NCBI GenBank assembly: GCA_035631035.1
Contig: DASQJL010000108.1
Span: 1-64,000 of the forward strand
Direction of reading: 5' to 3'
Source: Candidatus Binatia bacterium
GTDB lineage: Bacteria > Eisenbacteria > RBG-16-71-46 > SZUA-252
DNA: 64,000 bases
Positions 4,735-64,000 of the stretch are shown one piece after another. Numbering within the stretch: the first letter of the stretch is position 1; each line of letters opens with the position of its first letter. The position numbers were made by a program, and so were the translations under genes. The notes under the pieces are model-generated. The model saw only the letters and a list, made by a program, of their open reading frames with translations. It ran no database searches and had not been told where the DNA came from.

Positions 4735-4755
4735 CCCGCAGGTCGACTTGCAGCG

Positions 4756-4831
4756 TTGCGCGGGCCGGATTTGAACCAGCGATCTTCGGCTTATGAGGCC
4801 GACGAGGACGACCGAACTCCTCTACCACGCA
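4756..4831 (-). tRNA. tRNA-Met (CAT anticodon)
   Basis: A complete 76-base cloverleaf can be drawn. The acceptor TGCGTGG pairs with CCGCGCA (one G-T pair), the D stem is GAGG/CCTC and the anticodon stem TCGGC/GCCGA holds the loop CTCATAA (anticodon CAT). The T stem GCTGG/CCGGC holds the loop TTCAAAT. The 3' end is A followed by CGC, so CCA would be added after transcription. The anticodon stem lacks the three G-C pairs typical of initiator tRNA, so this is probably an elongator Met tRNA, or an Ile tRNA with modified C34. Phages often carry one such tRNA. Confidence 0.9.
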
Positions 4832-18891: not shown

Positions 18892-18907
18892 AGGAGGTTT
18901 GTCTGAA

Positions 18908-19960
18908 TTGAGCGTTAACATGCGAACCGCCGCCGACGAGTTCCTACAGAAGGGACTGACGCACCGGTCGGCCGGCACGCGGCGCGCCTACGCCCGGCCG
19001 CTCGATGTGTTGGTCAACGTCACCGGCGAGCGGATGCCGATCACCCGGCTCGACCGCACGCACATCGATGAGGCCCTACGACTCAGCAAGGGGGGCATCG
19101 CGCTCAAGGTGCCGGCGTCGCGCCGGCAGGAATTGCACGGCCGCTCCGAGGAGTCGCTGAACGTGGACCGGACCGCATACAGCCGGTTCGTTCATTACTG
19201 GCAGACGCGGGGGTACTTCCACGGCAAGATCAGCCCGACAGCTCATATCGAATACGCGAAGCGGAAGCGCAAGAGCGGCGAGCGCAAGCGCCCGCTAACG
19301 ATCGAGGTGGGCATGGAGGTCATGCGACTAGCTGGTGAGACTCACCCACGGGACCGCATGGCCGTCGCGCTTGCGCTTTTCACTGGCATGCGCGTCTCCG
19401 AAATCGCCGCCCTTCGGTGGGGTCACGTGAAGTGGGCCGATAAGGAGATCCACTTCCCGCGCGACAAGGCGGACGATGAACACGTGGCCATGTTCAACCC
19501 GCCGCTGGAGCGGGAGCTGCAAACATGGCACGGCATCTATGGCGAACGGCACGGCACTATCAGCGATGACTGGTACGTCGTGCCCGGCCGACTGCAAGGC
19601 AAGTACCGCGATCGGTTTGATCGCATGAACCCCGACTGGCCGATGATCCCGAACCGGCCAGCCACCAACTTGTACGTCTGCCTCAAGCCGTTGTTGGTCG
19701 CGGCTGGCGTGCAACACCTGGACGGCAAAGCGTGGCATACCCTGCGCCGGACGTTCGCCAACGAGTTCTACGAGGAGAAGCGCGACATCCGGTCCGTGCA
19801 GGAAGCGCTGGGCCACAAGAGTGAGAAGACCACGGAGATCTACCTTGACATGGATGAGCAGCGCAACAAGAACAAGATCGCGATGAGGAACTGGGACCCA
19901 ACCCGCAAGATTGCCCAGGCCACCGGCAACGTGGTGCCGTTCCAGCGCAAGGCTCAGTAG
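18908..19960 (+). CDS. int: Tyrosine integrase
   Basis: A 350-residue site-specific recombinase. The N-terminal arm- and core-binding region covers about residues 1-145. The catalytic residues are visible: Arg in FTGMRVSEIAALRW near 160, the HTLRR box near 276, LGHKSEKTT near 300, and the nucleophile Tyr in EIYLDMDEQ near 311. It inserts the phage into the host chromosome and, with a directionality factor, excises it. I chose TTG 18908 because AGGAGG at 18892-18897 is ten bases upstream. TTG 18899 is too close to that site, and ATG 18920 is a third option. Confidence 0.95.
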   Translation: MSVNMRTAADEFLQKGLTHRSAGTRRAYARPLDVLVNVTGERMPITRLDRTHIDEALRLSKGGIALKVPASRRQELHGRSEESLNVDRTAYSRFVHYWQTRGYFHGKISPTAHIEYAKRKRKSGERKRPLTIEVGMEVMRLAGETHPRDRMAVALALFTGMRVSEIAALRWGHVKWADKEIHFPRDKADDEHVAMFNPPLERELQTWHGIYGERHGTISDDWYVVPGRLQGKYRDRFDRMNPDWPMIPNRPATNLYVCLKPLLVAAGVQHLDGKAWHTLRRTFANEFYEEKRDIRSVQEALGHKSEKTTEIYLDMDEQRNKNKIAMRNWDPTRKIAQATGNVVPFQRKAQ

Positions 19961-56443: not shown

Positions 56444-56521
56444 GCGCGACCTCGCTTGTCGTATCTATGCATCGCTGACTTCCGATTAGTTCGGCAAGTA
56501 CCATTTGGATAGCATTTGGCC

Positions 56522-57154
56522 ATGGGTCGAAGCGCCGCCAATCCGATCGACAGATACTTGAGCAAAGTGGATCGTGGCGGTGCCGATGAGTGCTGGCCGT
56601 GGACCGCTGCGTGCTTTACGAACGGATACGGTGCGTTCCGGGTCGGAAACAAGCAACTCAAAGCCCACCGATTCGGCTACGCGGAACTGATCGCCCCGAT
56701 CCCGGTCGGGCTGTACGTCTGCCACACCTGCGACAACCGACCATGTCAAAATCCCGCCCACTGGTTTCTCGGCACCACGGGCGACAATGCCCGCGACCGC
56801 GAAGCCAAAGGTCGCGGAGCCCGGAACGGCAAGGTTCGATTTCAACCCGAACAGGTGCGAGAGATGCGACTGCTCGGCCTGAACGGAGTCACCCAGGCCG
56901 AGATCGCCAACCGCTTCGAAACTCAACAGTCATCGGTCTCACAGATACTGCGTCGCAAGACCTTCGCCCACCTCGACACCGACCTACCGGCATGGAAGAC
57001 GAGCCGCAGATACAAAGTCACACCAGCCATTGCGGACGCCGTACTCGCCGAACGCGGTCACGGGTTAACCATGAATGAGATCGGCGAGAGGCACGGCGTC
57101 AGCCGTGCCACCGTGAGGCACATCATCCGAGGCTGGCGACCGCTAGCCCACTAA
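56522..57154 (+). CDS. HNH homing-type endonuclease, 210 aa
   Basis: Opposite-strand gene between the major capsid gene and the next head gene. N-terminal part (CWPWTAACFTNGYGAFRVGN, and LYVCHTCDNRPCQNPAHWFL) is the HNH_3 homing endonuclease pattern: CHxCDNxxCxNPxHLxxG. The C-terminal part has two helix-turn-helix-like segments (TQAEIANRFETQQSSVSQIL and TMNEIGERHGVSRATVRHII). It probably cuts a homologous capsid region of related phages and spreads itself. Its stop overlaps the end of the capsid gene. Clearly an inserted element. Confidence 0.9.
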   Translation: MGRSAANPIDRYLSKVDRGGADECWPWTAACFTNGYGAFRVGNKQLKAHRFGYAELIAPIPVGLYVCHTCDNRPCQNPAHWFLGTTGDNARDREAKGRGARNGKVRFQPEQVREMRLLGLNGVTQAEIANRFETQQSSVSQILRRKTFAHLDTDLPAWKTSRRYKVTPAIADAVLAERGHGLTMNEIGERHGVSRATVRHIIRGWRPLAH

Positions 57155-58760: not shown

Positions 58761-59015
58761 TTACTTGAGCGAGCCGTCGCTGGCCCAGTTCTCCGGTAGG
58801 AGGTTGGTCAGTCCGAGCGCCTTGGCGCGGCGGATGATGTAGCGGCGTACCGCGGCGCGGCCGGCGTCGCCGCCCTTGGCGCGGCCCACGGCCTTGATGG
58901 CGCGCTGCAAGCTGGCCTTGTCGGTGATCGGGTATCGACCGCCGCGCTCGCTGTCGGGCATGGCCTGGCCCTTGTCGGCGAGACCCTTGCGCTGCTCCTT
59001 GCTGTAGTCAGGCAC
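58761..59015 (-). CDS. Small basic protein with SKEQRK/AMPDS motif, 84 aa
   Basis: GTG 59015. The sequence VPDYSKEQRKGLADKGQAMP, DSERGGRYPITDKASLQRAI, KAVGRAKGGDAGRAAVRRYI, IRRAKALGLTNLLPENW is a known short family found next to MuF and capsid genes in actinophages and bacterial prophages (possibly the one called DUF6582). Its role is not known; a nucleic-acid or head assembly function is likely. Overlaps the HIT gene by eight bases. Confidence 0.65.
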   Translation of the reverse strand: MPDYSKEQRKGLADKGQAMPDSERGGRYPITDKASLQRAIKAVGRAKGGDAGRAAVRRYIIRRAKALGLTNLLPENWASDGSLK

Positions 59016-59385
59016 CGGTGGCTCCCCGGACAATGAGGTGGACGTGCAGGTGGGCGATGGTGGCGCCGGTGCGCTGCATGTCGCCGCACCGCACACGTAG
59101 TTGGAAGTCGTCGATGCCGTAGAAGCCGCGCGCCAAATCGAGCCCGCACCAGAAGTCGGACCGTTCGGCCGTGGACAGGTCCCGCAGGTCGGTCAGGTGA
59201 CGCCGCGGCACCAGCAACAGGTGCGTGACCGCGTCCGGGTAGGGGTAGCGGTTGGGTGCCACCACCCAGTGCGTGGTGAACAGCCCGGTCCGGATGTCGC
59301 ACAGCACGCACGCGCCGGCCGCGTCCAGGCGACGCATCTCGTCGACCTGCTCGGGGTGGCGGGCGTTGGCGAGGCAATACAACAC
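59008..59385 (-). CDS. HIT-family (histidine triad) protein, 125 aa
   Basis: The triad IAHLHVHLIV near residue 112 is the H-x-H-x-H signature of nucleotide-binding HIT enzymes, with CVLCDIRTGLFTTHWVVAPN as the N-terminal zinc CxxC and THLLLVPRRHLTDLRDLSTA as the conserved middle. HIT enzymes hydrolyse or transfer nucleotides. It is embedded in the head gene operon between the MuF gene and the small basic gene, an uncommon but known arrangement in actinophages. Function in the phage is unknown. Confidence 0.8.
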   Translation of the reverse strand: MLYCLANARHPEQVDEMRRLDAAGACVLCDIRTGLFTTHWVVAPNRYPYPDAVTHLLLVPRRHLTDLRDLSTAERSDFWCGLDLARGFYGIDDFQLRVRCGDMQRTGATIAHLHVHLIVRGATGA

Positions 59386-59396
59386 GCCGGCCGCCT

Positions 59397-60362
59397 CTAG
59401 GTGATGTACCCGTGCAGACGTAGCAAGCGCAGCAACTCGGTCCGGTTGTCCCCCGCGATCTGGTAAATGCTCTCAGGGGTCAGTCGGATCACCTTGCGCT
59501 TCTTGCCGGCACCGAGGCGCTGCCCGGCGAGGCTGCGCTTGGTCACGCCTATCTGGGTGGCACGTAGCTGGCGCCCGGCCATCTGTACCCAGCGCATCTG
59601 CCGGCGGGCGTTGACCACTTGGAAGATGTCGGCGCCGTGCTCGCGGATCGCTGTCGCGCCAGCCTTGGTGAACACGCGGTTCTGTTCGTCCTCGATGAGC
59701 GAGTCGAAGTACGCGTGCGGGTCGGTGGTGTAGTGCCGGCCGTAGTCCTCGGACGCGGGCACGTGGATGCAGTCGCAATTGGGGTGGCGCTTGAACCCGG
59801 CGTTGGACTTGTACCACTTGCCGGCCAGGATGACGCACCGCGCGCACGAGGGCGGGGTGAGCATCCTGATGTAGCCCTCGGCATGCCGGGCAGCGTTGAT
59901 GGCGACCCCGACCGGCACGCGGGCCGCGTCGGAGATCTGGGTGTCCACGATGCGCTTGAGCCGGGTGCCGGCCTCGGCGAGCGCCACATCGGCCGCCGCG
60001 CCCTGGTCGATCGCGTTCTGCGCCCCGACGGCGGGTACGCGCAGCAGACCATCGAGGTCGTTGCCGTCGGAAGCCGTACCGACGAACGCGGTGGGCGACA
60101 CCGTGCCGTCGGAGTCCGGGTCGACACCCTGTACGTCCAGCGCCGCGGTGACGTACTGCTGGGCACCGGATGCGGCGGCGTATTGGGCGGCCCGCATGAG
60201 CTTGCCGATCGTGGGCGCGACGGTCCGGTCCCAGCTCCCGGCCGGGTCGTTGCGGTTGACCCGTCGCCACAGACCGTCGACCAGTCGCCAGGTGTTAGTG
60301 GCGGTGACCTGGGTGACGTAGCGGCGCTGGGCGGCGAGTGCGGCCAGCTCAGCCGGCAGCAC
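59397..60362 (-). CDS. MuF-like minor head protein, 321 aa
   Basis: GTG 60362 overlaps the portal end by 14 bases. The conserved part near residues 190-250 (EGYIRMLTPPSCARCVILAG, KWYKSNAGFKRHPNCDCIHV) has the Cys pairs of the MuF C-terminal domain, which is needed for assembly and ejection-protein packaging. The C-terminal basic region reads KRSLAGQRLGAGKKRKVIRL. It stands in the usual position after the portal. No fused toxin domain was seen. Confidence 0.85.
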   Translation of the reverse strand: MLPAELAALAAQRRYVTQVTATNTWRLVDGLWRRVNRNDPAGSWDRTVAPTIGKLMRAAQYAAASGAQQYVTAALDVQGVDPDSDGTVSPTAFVGTASDGNDLDGLLRVPAVGAQNAIDQGAAADVALAEAGTRLKRIVDTQISDAARVPVGVAINAARHAEGYIRMLTPPSCARCVILAGKWYKSNAGFKRHPNCDCIHVPASEDYGRHYTTDPHAYFDSLIEDEQNRVFTKAGATAIREHGADIFQVVNARRQMRWVQMAGRQLRATQIGVTKRSLAGQRLGAGKKRKVIRLTPESIYQIAGDNRTELLRLLRLHGYIT

Positions 60363-61842
60363 TGGTCGGGTTCCGGTCCGGGTGGCCCGGTACCGGTGGC
60401 AGCGCCGGGCCCGATCCCGGCGGCGCGCCCGGTGCCGGTTGCAAGCTCGGCCCACCCGGCTGGCCCGGTGGCGTACCGGGCTGAGGCTGCTTGAGGATGG
60501 CCGCCAGGTTGGCGGCGTCCGCCTCGGCCTTCATGTCTTTCCAGCGGGCGATCTCGACCTGGCTGGCGCCCCAGCGCTCCCACAGCGCCTCCTCGGGCAC
60601 GCCGAGGGTGGACATCTTGAGCAGCGCGTCGACCAGCTCGCCCTCGGTACGGTGCTCCGGGTTGCGCCAGATCGTCTCGGTGCGCTCGTCCGCGTTGGAC
60701 AGTCCCGCGGCGGTGCGCATCAGCCGCACGGCCTCCTCGAAGCCCTCGCCGTAGGTACGCATCCGCTGCCGGACCTTGCTGACCAGACCGGACTCGGCGG
60801 CTTGGAGCGTGGCTCCGTTCACATTATTTAGCTCGCCTAACAAATACTGGGCCGGGGTGCGGGTGCGCGAGGCGATGTCTTTGACATCCTCGCGCTTGGC
60901 CGCCGAGTACGGGTCGAGCGGGGCGGCGTCGAACTGGCCGAACTCAGTCTCGGCCGCATCCGAGGTGACCAGCCGGTTGCGGCCGATGTTGACCCGGTTC
61001 GGATTCCCGTCCGCGTCCGTGTCCGGGAAGCCGATGGCCCACTTCTGCGGGAACGCGCCGAAGTCCTGAGTCATCAGCCGGTCGGCCAGCGTCTTGGCGA
61101 TCCGGTCCTGGATGGAGATCACGTCGGCGATCTCGGACACGCCGCCGGTGAGTACCCGCGGGTTATTGGCCAGCTCGACCAGCGGCACCACGCCCAGTGG
61201 GTTGGGCGCGGGCCACCGTTCGGCGGTCACCTCGCGCGGCACCCAGTTCATGGTGGTCAGACCCTGCACCTGCGGCTTGTCGGTGACGAACTTGTAGAGC
61301 CCGTCCGGCAGGTACAGCGTGGCGTTGACCTTGCCGGTCCAGTCGTCCAGCCACACCTTGAGCCCGGCGGACCGCTCGCGCCGGCCCATGCCGGGCTGGT
61401 ACTCCACAATGGCCTGGGCGGGGTGTTCGACGTAGACCAGTGGCGTTTTCGGGTCATCCGGGTTGGGCGCGACCAGCAGGTACGACTGGCCGGCGATCAG
61501 CCCCTCCAGGATGGCCTGATCCGACTCGCTGTCGAGATTGTTGGCCTGCCAGATCCGCCAGGTCTCCTCGTCGGCGTCCCGCTCGTCACCGATGCGGAAG
61601 CCCTCGATCTGCATCCGCTCGGCCGTGGCGTCGACCACCAGACCCATGTAGTTGGAGCGGGTCAGATCCAGCAGCCGGCGGAACTCCTCGCGGGCCTGCT
61701 CGGGCAGCCACGGGTAGCGGGGCGGCACGCCGCGGTAGTACGCGTCGTAGCGCTCCACGTCGTCCAGGCGGGCGGTGAGCTGCTTGTACAGCCGCTTGAC
61801 CCACCACATCGGGGTGAGCGGTTCGTCGGTCGGCACGCTCAC
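60349..61842 (-). CDS. Portal protein (SPP1 gp6-type), 497 aa
   Basis: The protein PRYPWLPEQAREEFRRLLDL, TRSNYMGLVVDATAERMQIE, GFRIGDERDADEETWRIWQA and SDQAILEGLIAGQSYLLVAP matches the Phage_prot_Gp6 portal family. The C-terminal part (VRQRMRTYGEGFEEAVRLMR) is the helical crown, followed by a Pro/Gly tail (QPGTPPGQPGGPSLQPAPGA). Twelve copies form the channel for DNA. It precedes MuF and follows, after an inserted cassette, the terminase. Confidence 0.9.
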   Translation of the reverse strand: MSVPTDEPLTPMWWVKRLYKQLTARLDDVERYDAYYRGVPPRYPWLPEQAREEFRRLLDLTRSNYMGLVVDATAERMQIEGFRIGDERDADEETWRIWQANNLDSESDQAILEGLIAGQSYLLVAPNPDDPKTPLVYVEHPAQAIVEYQPGMGRRERSAGLKVWLDDWTGKVNATLYLPDGLYKFVTDKPQVQGLTTMNWVPREVTAERWPAPNPLGVVPLVELANNPRVLTGGVSEIADVISIQDRIAKTLADRLMTQDFGAFPQKWAIGFPDTDADGNPNRVNIGRNRLVTSDAAETEFGQFDAAPLDPYSAAKREDVKDIASRTRTPAQYLLGELNNVNGATLQAAESGLVSKVRQRMRTYGEGFEEAVRLMRTAAGLSNADERTETIWRNPEHRTEGELVDALLKMSTLGVPEEALWERWGASQVEIARWKDMKAEADAANLAAILKQPQPGTPPGQPGGPSLQPAPGAPPGSGPALPPVPGHPDRNPTSAAG

Positions 61843-61898
61843 TCCCGTTTCTATCTAGTTGGGTTGACTTTCACTGTCTAGTGACCTAGACTGGAGAT

Positions 61899-62111
61899 AT
61901 GAAGCGAAGCGCACTGCTCCGAAAGATCCGCAAAGCCGCCAACACGGCGGGCGTTGCGTTCGGGGAGGTCCGCGAAGGCGGCGACCACTCGATCTTCCGG
62001 TGCGGATCGACTTCGATCTCGGTCCCCCGTCACCGGGAGATCAACGAATTCACCGCGCGGGGCATCCTGCGCGACCTAGAAGACGAACTCGGAAAGGGGT
62101 GGTGGCGGTGA
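61899..62111 (+). CDS. HicA-like toxin, 70 aa
   Basis: A 70-residue protein on the opposite strand to the late genes. KRSALLRKIRKAANTAGVAF, GEVREGGDHSIFRCGSTSIS, VPRHREINEFTARGILRDLE is the double-stranded-RNA-binding-like fold of HicA mRNA interferases, with the catalytic His in the GxH motif (GGDHSIF). HicA toxins cut mRNA and are neutralised by HicB. It overlaps the next gene by GTGA. The pair sits between portal and terminase. Confidence 0.8.
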   Translation: MKRSALLRKIRKAANTAGVAFGEVREGGDHSIFRCGSTSISVPRHREINEFTARGILRDLEDELGKGWWR

Positions 62112-62479
62112 CCCGCTACACCGTGACCTGCCAGCGTTCGGGCGGCTGGTGGGCGATCAGTGCACCGAAGATCAAGGGACTCCACTCACAGGCACGCAGG
62201 CTCGATCAGGTCGAGGCGATGGCCCGCGACGCGATCTCGCTCCTGCTCGACGTGCCGGCCGACTCGTTCACCCTCGACGTGCGGCCCGAACTGCCCGACG
62301 AGGCCGTCGAAGCGTTACGGGCGCGCGAAGAAGCCGAGCAGGCGGAACGGCGGGCCGCAGCCGCCACCAGGTGGGCGATCGAGCAGTTGCGCGCAGCCGG
62401 GTTCAGCGTGCGCGACACGGGCTCGTTGTTGCACCTGTCACCGCAGCGGGTGTCGCAGATCGAACACGAGGCGGCGTGA
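62108..62479 (+). CDS. HicB-like antitoxin with C-terminal helix-turn-helix, 123 aa
   Basis: GTG 62108 overlaps the toxin stop. The N-terminus (TRYTVTCQRSGGWWAISAPK, IKGLHSQARRLDQVEAMARD, AISLLLDVPADSF) is the partial RNase-H fold of HicB antitoxins. The C-terminus (ATRWAIEQLRAAGFSVRDTG, SLLHLSPQRVSQIEHEAA) is a helix-turn-helix that may bind the module's own promoter. The order toxin then antitoxin is typical of hicAB. Confidence 0.8.
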   Translation: MTRYTVTCQRSGGWWAISAPKIKGLHSQARRLDQVEAMARDAISLLLDVPADSFTLDVRPELPDEAVEALRAREEAEQAERRAAAATRWAIEQLRAAGFSVRDTGSLLHLSPQRVSQIEHEAA

Positions 62480-62757
62480 TGGCGCGCCGCTGGGAGGAGG
62501 TGCGCGCCGAAGCCGGTCTCGACGAGCAGGCGATCGCCGCGCACCGCACCCGGCTCGACCGGGTACCGACGGAGCACCCCGTGTTCGACGTACTCGCCAA
62601 GCCGTGGGCCGGCGGCTGGGAACTACACATCGACGGCATCGGCGTCACCCAGTCGCACAGCCTCACAGACGCCGAGGCGATGGCGCGCGACTACATCGCC
62701 ACGGATCTCGACATCGACGCCAACTCGTTCGACGTCGAGATCAGGCCGGTTCAGTAA
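62479..62757 (+). CDS. Third gene of the HicAB-like module, HicB-like, 92 aa
   Basis: ATG 62479 overlaps the antitoxin stop (TGATG). The C-terminal half (LAKPWAGGWELHIDGIGVTQ, SHSLTDAEAMARDYIATDLD, IDANSFDVEIRPVQ) has the same fold as HicB: W-x-l..i.gig.tqs.sl.eae.mar..ia..l...., while the N-terminal 40 residues (RRWEEVRAEAGLDEQAIAAH) look like an N-terminal helix-turn-helix. Could be a second antitoxin or a regulator. A three-gene arrangement like this is unusual. Confidence 0.65.
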   Translation: MARRWEEVRAEAGLDEQAIAAHRTRLDRVPTEHPVFDVLAKPWAGGWELHIDGIGVTQSHSLTDAEAMARDYIATDLDIDANSFDVEIRPVQ

Positions 62758-64000
62758 CCGGACACCTTGCCGGTGACCCGCGTGTACTTGCTCTGACTGG
62801 ACTTGCCGCGCACCGTCCACGCGCCGACCGCGAGCGCGGCGGCGGGTACGGCGTCGATGCGCTTGCCGGTCTCGCCGCGCGCCGGCTTCTCGGGCCGGAT
62901 CAGTTCGGCGTTCTCGCGGGATCGGCGCACCTCGACGTTGTCGAAGCACCACTGCGCGACCGGGTTGGCGTGGTGGTGGAAGCGCTGTTCTTTGACCAGC
63001 CCCATCAGCGCGGTCATGCCCGGCGTCATGTCGGCGAATGTGTTGGAGCGCGGTACGAGCTGCGTCTCCTCGCGCAACCGGGTGCGCTTGGCGATCTCCT
63101 GGATGACCGGGAACATCGACCATTTGTCGCAGTCGCCGCCGACGATCTTGAACTGCTGGGCGTCGGCCTCGATGTCGTCGTAGACCCGGTCGTAGTCGAG
63201 CACTTCGCCGTCGGTCAGGGTGATGAACCCGGCCTGTACCCATCGCGAGATCTTGCCGTCGTTGTGCTTGTCGAGTTGCGGCACGGCGGCCTCGGGTAGC
63301 CAGAACCGCCACAGCACGTCGACCGGGGCGTTGTCGTCGCCGGGGAAGATCAGACACCAGGCGGTGAGGTCCATCTTGGCCGCCAGGTCGAACCCGGCCC
63401 AGGCGACGCGGCCGGCGAGCTGCTCGCGGCCCCACTCGGGGCGCAGCCACATGTCGCCGCACGAGTCGAGGTACAGGTGCATCGGCATCCAGCGCGACGC
63501 CTGCTGTACCCACTGGTTGAGCCGGAACTGCCGGAAGCCGTTCTCGGCGGCCGGGTCGTTGCGGGCCTCCAGCGCCTCTTTGCGCATCGCCTCGCGGGAC
63601 AGGAAGTCATCCAGCGCAGGGTTGGCGTGCGCCCAGTTCGCCTCGTCGAACGGATCGGCGTCGCGCGGCGTGTTGCGCATGTACGCAAACACGTGCGGCG
63701 CCCGCTCGGGGTCCTCGCTGACCCGCTGCATCTCGGTGTGCATCGCGGCGGCGAACCCAGCCGGGTCATTGCCGGCGGTGGTCGCGGCGACCATCAACGG
63801 CTGCCGGCGCGCACCAGAGCCCATGCCGGTGCGCAGCGCGTCCCACATGGACCGGTCGCGCCAGGCCAGGATCTCGTCGGCGGCGACCCCGGACGGGTTG
63901 GAGCCGAGCGCGCCGGCCGCGTCCGCGGCGATCACCTGGTAGAAGCTGTTGGTCTTCGGGTCGATGATGCGCTTGATGTGCGCGCGGATCTGGAGCCGCT
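62751..64000 (-). CDS. terL: Terminase large subunit, partial (N-terminus beyond the window)
   Basis: Open to the right edge (first visible residues RLQIRAHIKRIIDPKTNSFY). ADEILAWRDRSMWDALRTGM is the Walker-B/coupling region of the ATPase. The nuclease domain shows AGFDLAAKMDLTAWCLIF with the first Asp, KIVGGDCDKWSMFPVIQEIA with the second, and SRENAELIRPEKPARGETGK followed by a late Ala/Gly segment. The enzyme cuts and pumps phage DNA into the head. The last seven bases overlap the third gene of the HicAB-like module, read in the other direction. Confidence 0.9.
   Translation of the reverse strand, partial: RLQIRAHIKRIIDPKTNSFYQVIAADAAGALGSNPSGVAADEILAWRDRSMWDALRTGMGSGARRQPLMVAATTAGNDPAGFAAAMHTEMQRVSEDPERAPHVFAYMRNTPRDADPFDEANWAHANPALDDFLSREAMRKEALEARNDPAAENGFRQFRLNQWVQQASRWMPMHLYLDSCGDMWLRPEWGREQLAGRVAWAGFDLAAKMDLTAWCLIFPGDDNAPVDVLWRFWLPEAAVPQLDKHNDGKISRWVQAGFITLTDGEVLDYDRVYDDIEADAQQFKIVGGDCDKWSMFPVIQEIAKRTRLREETQLVPRSNTFADMTPGMTALMGLVKEQRFHHHANPVAQWCFDNVEVRRSRENAELIRPEKPARGETGKRIDAVPAAALAVGAWTVRGKSSQSKYTRVTGKVSGY

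What the first reader, a model, noticed from the sequence alone, without database searches (positions are those of the whole stretch)
61899..62757. HicAB-type module inserted between portal and terminase, with a third HicB-like gene
Three rightward genes lie inside the leftward late operon: a HicA-like RNase, a HicB-like antitoxin with a helix-turn-helix, and a third protein with HicB-like C-terminus and probable helix-turn-helix N-terminus, all overlapping by one to four bases. The location between terminase and portal, where late transcription must cross it, could couple toxin control to the lytic switch or defend against other phages. A second antitoxin-like gene in one operon is unusual.
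Basis: partly seen in the sequence, partly recalled or inferred. Interest (0 to 1): 0.75.

Follow-up and report, generated by a model that had tools for sequence, protein, structure and literature searches.

The report
Phage toxin-antitoxin module with extra antitoxin
A bacterial virus carries an ordinary HicA toxin / HicB antitoxin pair slipped backwards into its head-gene operon, followed by a third small gene that is a second antitoxin from a different lineage, stripped of its DNA-binding end; the pair is a known kind of module, the extra antitoxin is unusual and its job is not yet shown.

Summary
Three rightward ORFs (HicA 61899-62111, HicB 62108-62479, third gene 62479-62757) overlap by 4 and 1 nt inside the leftward terminase-portal operon of a temperate siphophage contig. 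The nearest relatives have terminase and portal only 11 nt apart, so about 900 nt was inserted. Genes 1-2 are a standard HicAB pair: HicA keeps the G..H motif; HicB has the HicB fold plus a C-terminal HTH. The promoter's -10 box lies in a palindrome (GTCTAG-N4-CTAGAC), and close versions of this layout precede hicA in other actinobacterial phages, plasmids and chromosomes. It is not a copy of gene 2: it belongs to another HicB clade (50-63% identity) whose HicAs differ, and it ends at the terminase boundary, without the HTH most relatives carry. No three-gene copy was found elsewhere. Best reading: a HicAB moron plus a foreign, HTH-less HicB that can probably still bind a toxin. Whether that is a trans-antidote, a second antitoxin for this HicA or an insertion relic is open. 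New variant of a known kind.

The parts
61843..62750 (.). whole segment between terminase stop and portal start; about 900 nt inserted relative to relatives with an 11-nt gap
   Evidence: L015/L016 empty site, terminase 79% and portal 72% identical
61853..61859 (+). upstream operator half-site ATCTAGT, repeat of the one 23 nt downstream
   Evidence: direct repeat; half-sites at similar places before other hicA genes
61864..61892 (+). promoter TTGACT-17-TAGACT; expected transcription start on or beside the hicA ATG (leaderless mRNA, inferred)
   Evidence: only promoter-like site in 60000-64000, 0.2 expected; layout shared with other hicA genes
61876..61891 (.). palindrome GTCTAG-TGAC-CTAGAC over the -10 box, presumed HicB operator
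   Evidence: unique in the window; same pattern 8 nt before hicA of a Paenarthrobacter plasmid
61899..62111 (+). gene A: HicA-type toxin, 70 aa, G27 and H30 kept in REGGDHSIF
   Evidence: phrog_353 E 1.1e-13; 46-52% to HicAs beside B-type HicBs; phage HicAs up to 46%
62108..62479 (+). gene B: HicB antitoxin, 123 aa, partial RNase H domain plus C-terminal HTH
   Evidence: phrog_8245 E 2.7e-25; model pLDDT 93.8; PDB HicBs 6u0i, 6g1n, 6hpb prob 0.99-1.00
62479..62757 (+). gene C: foreign, HTH-less HicB, 92 aa; residues 1-34 arm of unknown origin, 35-90 HicB domain; last codon and stop are antisense to the terminase end
   Evidence: model, viral fold match to HicB-like antitoxins, tree, junction sequence

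Best explanation
A temperate phage carries a moron of about 900 nt inserted in reverse orientation between its terminase and portal genes. Genes A and B are a conventional HicAB type II toxin-antitoxin pair (Gerdes class 3). B binds A and blocks its RNase activity, and through its C-terminal HTH represses the operon at a CTAG-type palindrome covering the -10 box, so the pair can be expressed from the prophage while the late genes are off. Gene C is a foreign HicB, not a duplicate of B. It keeps the toxin-binding domain but has no DNA-binding domain, because it ends at the insertion boundary. Most likely C is translated by coupling to B and binds HicA-type toxins without repressing; its likeliest target is a HicA of its own clade (the CPCG...CLPEGWLQ type found on chromosomes, plasmids and phages), making it a trans-antidote. 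Shown here: gene identity, domain structure, conserved promoter/operator layout, the insertion, the separate lineage of C, its end at the boundary. Inferred: toxicity, neutralisation, autorepression, expression in the lysogen, and the target of C (trans-antidote about 0.38, second antitoxin for A about 0.25, relic about 0.33).
For: HicA and HicB assignments. Conserved promoter/operator. Empty site. C has the HicB fold, belongs to the GVTQS clade, and the HicAs of that clade are only 26-36% identical to A while HicAs beside B-type HicBs are 46-52%. HTH-less small relatives without a clear HicA neighbour on two viral contigs, L009 and L052. Phage HicAB shown active in Adephagia (PMC11373665) and a toxic HicA in Amelie (PMC11797047).
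Against: No toxicity or binding data. The HicA Pfam score is below the curated cut-off. The whole-model PDB search of C is not significant. The tree rests on 58 columns with many weak forks. No second HicA was found in the assembly for C to neutralise, though the true host of the phage is uncertain.
Confidence: 0.7

Rival explanations
1. C is a relic: a HicB fragment left at the recombination junction when the cassette landed at the terminase stop codon, still open but without a selected function.
For: C ends at the boundary, its last codon and stop supplied by antisense terminase sequence; its relatives beside a HicA mostly carry an HTH that C lacks; no close homologue of the whole protein, and the N-terminal arm matches nothing convincingly.
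Against: The HicB domain is complete and folds confidently, codon-position GC is strongly coding-like, no stop codon or frameshift, and the TGATG junction with B keeps translation coupling.
Confidence: 0.33
2. C is a second antitoxin for A: a non-repressing partner that raises antitoxin dose without adding repression, for example to keep A silent when late antisense transcription lowers B.
For: Same operon, 1-nt overlap with B; antitoxins without a DNA-binding domain work alone in class 1 and 2 modules (PMC10865869), as in Adephagia gp90 (PMC11373665).
Against: C belongs to a clade whose HicA partners are a different type from A; no other hicAB locus examined needs a second HicB.
Confidence: 0.25
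3. C is a tandem duplicate of B that lost its HTH and diverged.
For: 41% identity over 51 aa and one short DNA match.
Against: C is 50-63% identical to other HicBs and groups with them; 0% of 200 bootstrap trees join B and C.
Confidence: 0.03

Closest known systems
Class 3 hicAB modules (Gerdes 2024, PMC10865869)
   Same: hicA first, overlapping hicB, HicB with partial RNase H domain and C-terminal HTH, palindromic operator in the promoter
   Different: an extra HicB gene follows, and the module sits reversed inside a phage late operon
Gordonia phage HicABs (Powerball 29/28, Santhid 56/57, Agueybana 36/35)
   Same: HicA 46% identical in Powerball; HicB 38% identical over its length in Santhid; the same kind of CTAG operator before hicA, close in Powerball and more diverged in the others
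   Different: two genes only, located near integrase or early genes, not between terminase and portal
Adephagia gp90/gp91 (PMC11373665)
   Same: temperate actinophage HicAB; HicA toxicity and antitoxin rescue demonstrated; G28/H31 correspond to G27/H30 here
   Different: antitoxin first (class 2), HicB without HTH, no second HicB
Actinobacterial GVTQS-clade HicBs (Streptomyces carminius, Kitasatospora, Pseudonocardia plasmids)
   Same: HicB domain 50-63% identical to that of C
   Different: those beside a HicA mostly carry a C-terminal HTH; none has the 34-aa N-terminal arm
Solitary HicB proteins
   Same: HicB domain without its own HicA partner; known in archaea and bacteria (PMC9694453, PMC10865869)
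   Different: C is joined to another, complete hicAB operon

Membership tests
HicAB class 3 (genes A and B) | hicA upstream of and overlapping or adjacent to hicB | tested here: met
   GTGA overlap
HicAB class 3 (genes A and B) | HicA homology with conserved Gly and catalytic His | tested here: met
   phrog_353 E 1.1e-13; GGDH motif aligned with phage HicAs. Pfam HicA_toxin is below its cut-off
HicAB class 3 (genes A and B) | HicB partial RNase H fold plus C-terminal HTH | tested here: met
   PDB HicB matches
HicAB class 3 (genes A and B) | palindromic operator in the hicA promoter | tested here: met
   sequence and conservation only; binding not shown
HicAB class 3 (genes A and B) | toxicity of A and rescue by B | not testable with these tools
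   needs expression assays
Class 1 hicAB (gene C as HicB) | small HicB (67-97 aa) without DNA-binding domain | tested here: met
   92 aa, HicB fold at residues 35-90, low-confidence helices before it
Class 1 hicAB (gene C as HicB) | bicistronic pair, hicB directly after its hicA | tested here: not met
   gene B lies between A and C
Known three-gene hicA-hicB-hicB arrangement | same gene order in other genomes | tested here: not met
   none in Streptomycetaceae, plasmid and phage loci examined; none of the 14 Gerdes classes has it
HigA-type antitoxin arm (N-terminus of C) | homology to the W-x-E-V-R-A-E-A start of some Xre antitoxins | tested here: inconclusive
   one intact Xre antitoxin (L092) and a shortened copy (L093) share the motif near their start, but motif counts are at control level (8 vs 12) and sequence searches find nothing

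The most novel reading that the evidence does not exclude
A three-component HicA-HicB-HicB' module in which the cognate pair serves prophage maintenance or exclusion while the foreign, HTH-less HicB' is an anti-defence antidote against HicA toxins of hosts, plasmids or rival phages; if its N-terminal arm derives from HigA it could be a bivalent antitoxin for two toxin families.
Probability: 0.12. Interest if true: 0.7.

Novelty: new variant of a known kind. Interest (0 to 1): 0.38.

Why it matters
HicAB pairs are common in actinophages but their use to the phage is unclear. A locus that couples a complete pair to an antitoxin of a different lineage gives a direct test of whether phages carry spare antitoxins against toxins of others. 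The hicA promoter/operator layout shared by phages, plasmids and chromosomes gives a concrete, testable binding site for actinobacterial HicBs and shows that such modules move with their own promoter, which would let one function inside a silent late operon.

Tried and rejected
C as a copy of B: rejected by the tree. N-terminal HTH in C: not supported, no Pfam match to the arm. HigA-arm origin: motif counts at control level, only one intact Xre antitoxin with the motif; kept as a weak lead. Apparent arm matches in a Rhizobium plasmid (E 6) and a faecal phage (E 0.3, antisense of another ORF): rejected. PDB sequence searches for A, B and C: no relevant match. PDB fold search of C: no significant match. 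PADLOC: nothing. Viral-contig scans with A and with B as single queries: no relatives. Scans of the window's own family and phylum (47 genomes): C only in this assembly. ORFs in other terminase-portal gaps: no TA-like Pfam match. Second HicA in the assembly: none convincing. Operator as a phage-wide repressor site: rejected, one copy in the window.

Full report
Observation. Reading 61500-63200 and listing ORFs confirms three rightward ORFs: A 61899-62111, B 62108-62479, C 62479-62757, joined by GTGA and TGATG overlaps. They lie between the leftward portal gene (phrog_104) and the leftward large-terminase gene (phrog_9; whole gene 62751-64433). A matches phage 'toxin' phrog_353 over its whole length (E 1.1e-13), B matches 'HicB-like antitoxin' phrog_8245 (E 2.7e-25), C matches phrog_5243 at residues 56-89 (E 5e-5). 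Pfam HicA_toxin gives A E 5e-5, below its gathering score.

Setting. The window is bases 1-64000 of a 65,379-base contig of a binned assembly in a small phylum. The contig holds a tyrosine integrase (18899-19960), an Xre repressor-like gene, an excisionase-like HTH, DNA polymerase, primase, tape measure, endolysin and head genes, so it is a temperate siphophage-type genome. It has no terminal repeat. The portal is about 65% identical to Arthrobacter phage portals, so the true host may be an actinobacterium rather than the binned organism; this was not settled.

Insertion. Among 33 viral contigs with a related portal, the closest full match (L015 and L016, terminase 79%, portal 72%) has 11 nt between terminase stop and portal start; L018 has 9 nt. 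The window has 908 nt. None of the 33 loci has a match to A, B or C. Some relatives carry other short inserts in the same gap (for example L020, L024, L030), so the junction tolerates extra genes. The net insertion is about 900 nt.

Promoter and operator. Upstream of A lies TTGACT-17-TAGACT (61864-61892), the only promoter-like site found in the surrounding 4 kb (0.2 expected). The -10 lies within the palindrome GTCTAG-TGAC-CTAGAC (61876-61891), unique in the window. A half-site copy ATCTAGT lies 23 nt upstream. The expected start of transcription falls on or beside the ATG, so the mRNA is probably leaderless (inference). A search of all fetched loci for GTCTAG-N4-CTAGAC hit a Paenarthrobacter plasmid hicAB (L105), 8 nt before its hicA. 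Close versions (TTGACTT ... GTCTAG-N3 to 6-CTAGACT ... start codon) stand before hicA in phage Powerball, a Janibacter plasmid and Streptomycetaceae chromosomes, with diverged versions in other phages. Both motifs occur in 6 of 20 hicA upstreams and in 0 of 4769 control windows; the pattern was chosen after inspection, so this is a description, not a blind test.

Gene B. The model (pLDDT 93.8) has the HicB partial RNase H domain, a long helix and an HTH. Its PDB matches include E. coli HicB (6u0i, prob 1.00, rmsd 0.9) and B. pseudomallei HicB (6g1n, prob 0.99), with E-values of only 0.1-0.2, the shared domain being short. HicBs like B occur in 26 plasmid records, and of six viewed several have a HicA just upstream.

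Gene C. Residues 35-90 fold as strand-strand-strand-helix-strand at pLDDT about 96-97, while residues 1-30 form two helices at 57-66. The PDB search of the whole model is not significant, but the viral library returns phage Nibb HicB-like antitoxin (prob 1.00, TM 0.89 on the target, rmsd 1.0) and Gordonia phage Skog HicB-like antitoxin (prob 1.00). By sequence C is 50-63% identical to a 'GVTQS' clade of HicBs in Streptomyces, Kitasatospora, Pseudonocardia plasmids and viral contigs. B and C are sisters in none of 200 bootstrap trees (58 columns, many weak forks). Most HicAs beside B-type HicBs are 46-52% identical to A, and those beside C-type HicBs 26-36% over the aligned stretch. So A and B are the matched pair, and C comes from a lineage whose HicA is absent here. 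C-type relatives beside a HicA mostly carry a C-terminal HTH. C lacks it: its final CAG and TAA codons are antisense to terminase's last Tyr and stop codons (62752-62757), so C ends at the insertion boundary. HTH-less small relatives without a clear neighbouring HicA occur on two viral contigs (L009, L052), and on a Pseudonocardia plasmid (L047) with a possible HicA remnant at E 0.3.

Three-gene order elsewhere. In 200 Streptomycetaceae genomes each HicB locus found has one HicB, and 12 of the best 30 loci have a recognisable HicA. No conserved third gene follows HicB there or in six plasmid loci. The phage loci viewed show no second HicB. The order is so far seen only in this contig.

Mechanism. 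From established HicAB biology (PMC10865869, PMC11594946) and phage precedents (Adephagia gp90/gp91, PMC11373665; Amelie gp73, PMC11797047), A is expected to cleave RNA and B to block it and autorepress. C cannot repress but can plausibly bind a HicA. Its clade argues for foreign HicAs as targets, its operon position argues for A, and its truncation argues for a relic; I rate these about 0.38, 0.25 and 0.33. Adephagia lysogens showed no difference in infection by about 60 phages (PMC11373665), so defence should not be assumed.

Verdict. The pair is ordinary for actinophages. The added foreign HTH-less HicB and the shared promoter/operator are the interesting parts. New variant of a known kind.

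Noticed in passing
61853-61898; upstream of hicA in L105, L104, L004, L063: A promoter/operator layout (TTGACTT ... GTCTAG-N3-6-CTAGACT, start codon about 7 nt on) recurs before hicA on phages, plasmids and chromosomes of actinobacteria.
   Followed up: partly
56516-57154 (+): An ORF with an HNH-like N-terminal half (by eye) and two C-terminal HTH matches lies on the opposite strand beside the major capsid gene: a second reversed gene inside the late operon.
   Followed up: partly
59008-59385 (-): A HIT-domain protein (PF01230, E 5e-9) lies in the late operon downstream of the head maturation protease gene.
   Followed up: no
G000:C108 whole contig: The contig looks like a whole or nearly whole temperate phage genome, and its portal is closest to Arthrobacter phages, although it is binned with a small phylum of 47 held genomes; it may be mis-binned.
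   Followed up: no
L020, L024, L025, L030, L036, L040, L045, upstream of portal: Several related phages carry other short inserts of about 200-600 nt between terminase and portal, so this junction may be a recurrent moron site.
   Followed up: partly
window 4755-4831 (-): Phage-borne tRNA-Met (CAT), the only tRNA found in the window.
   Followed up: no
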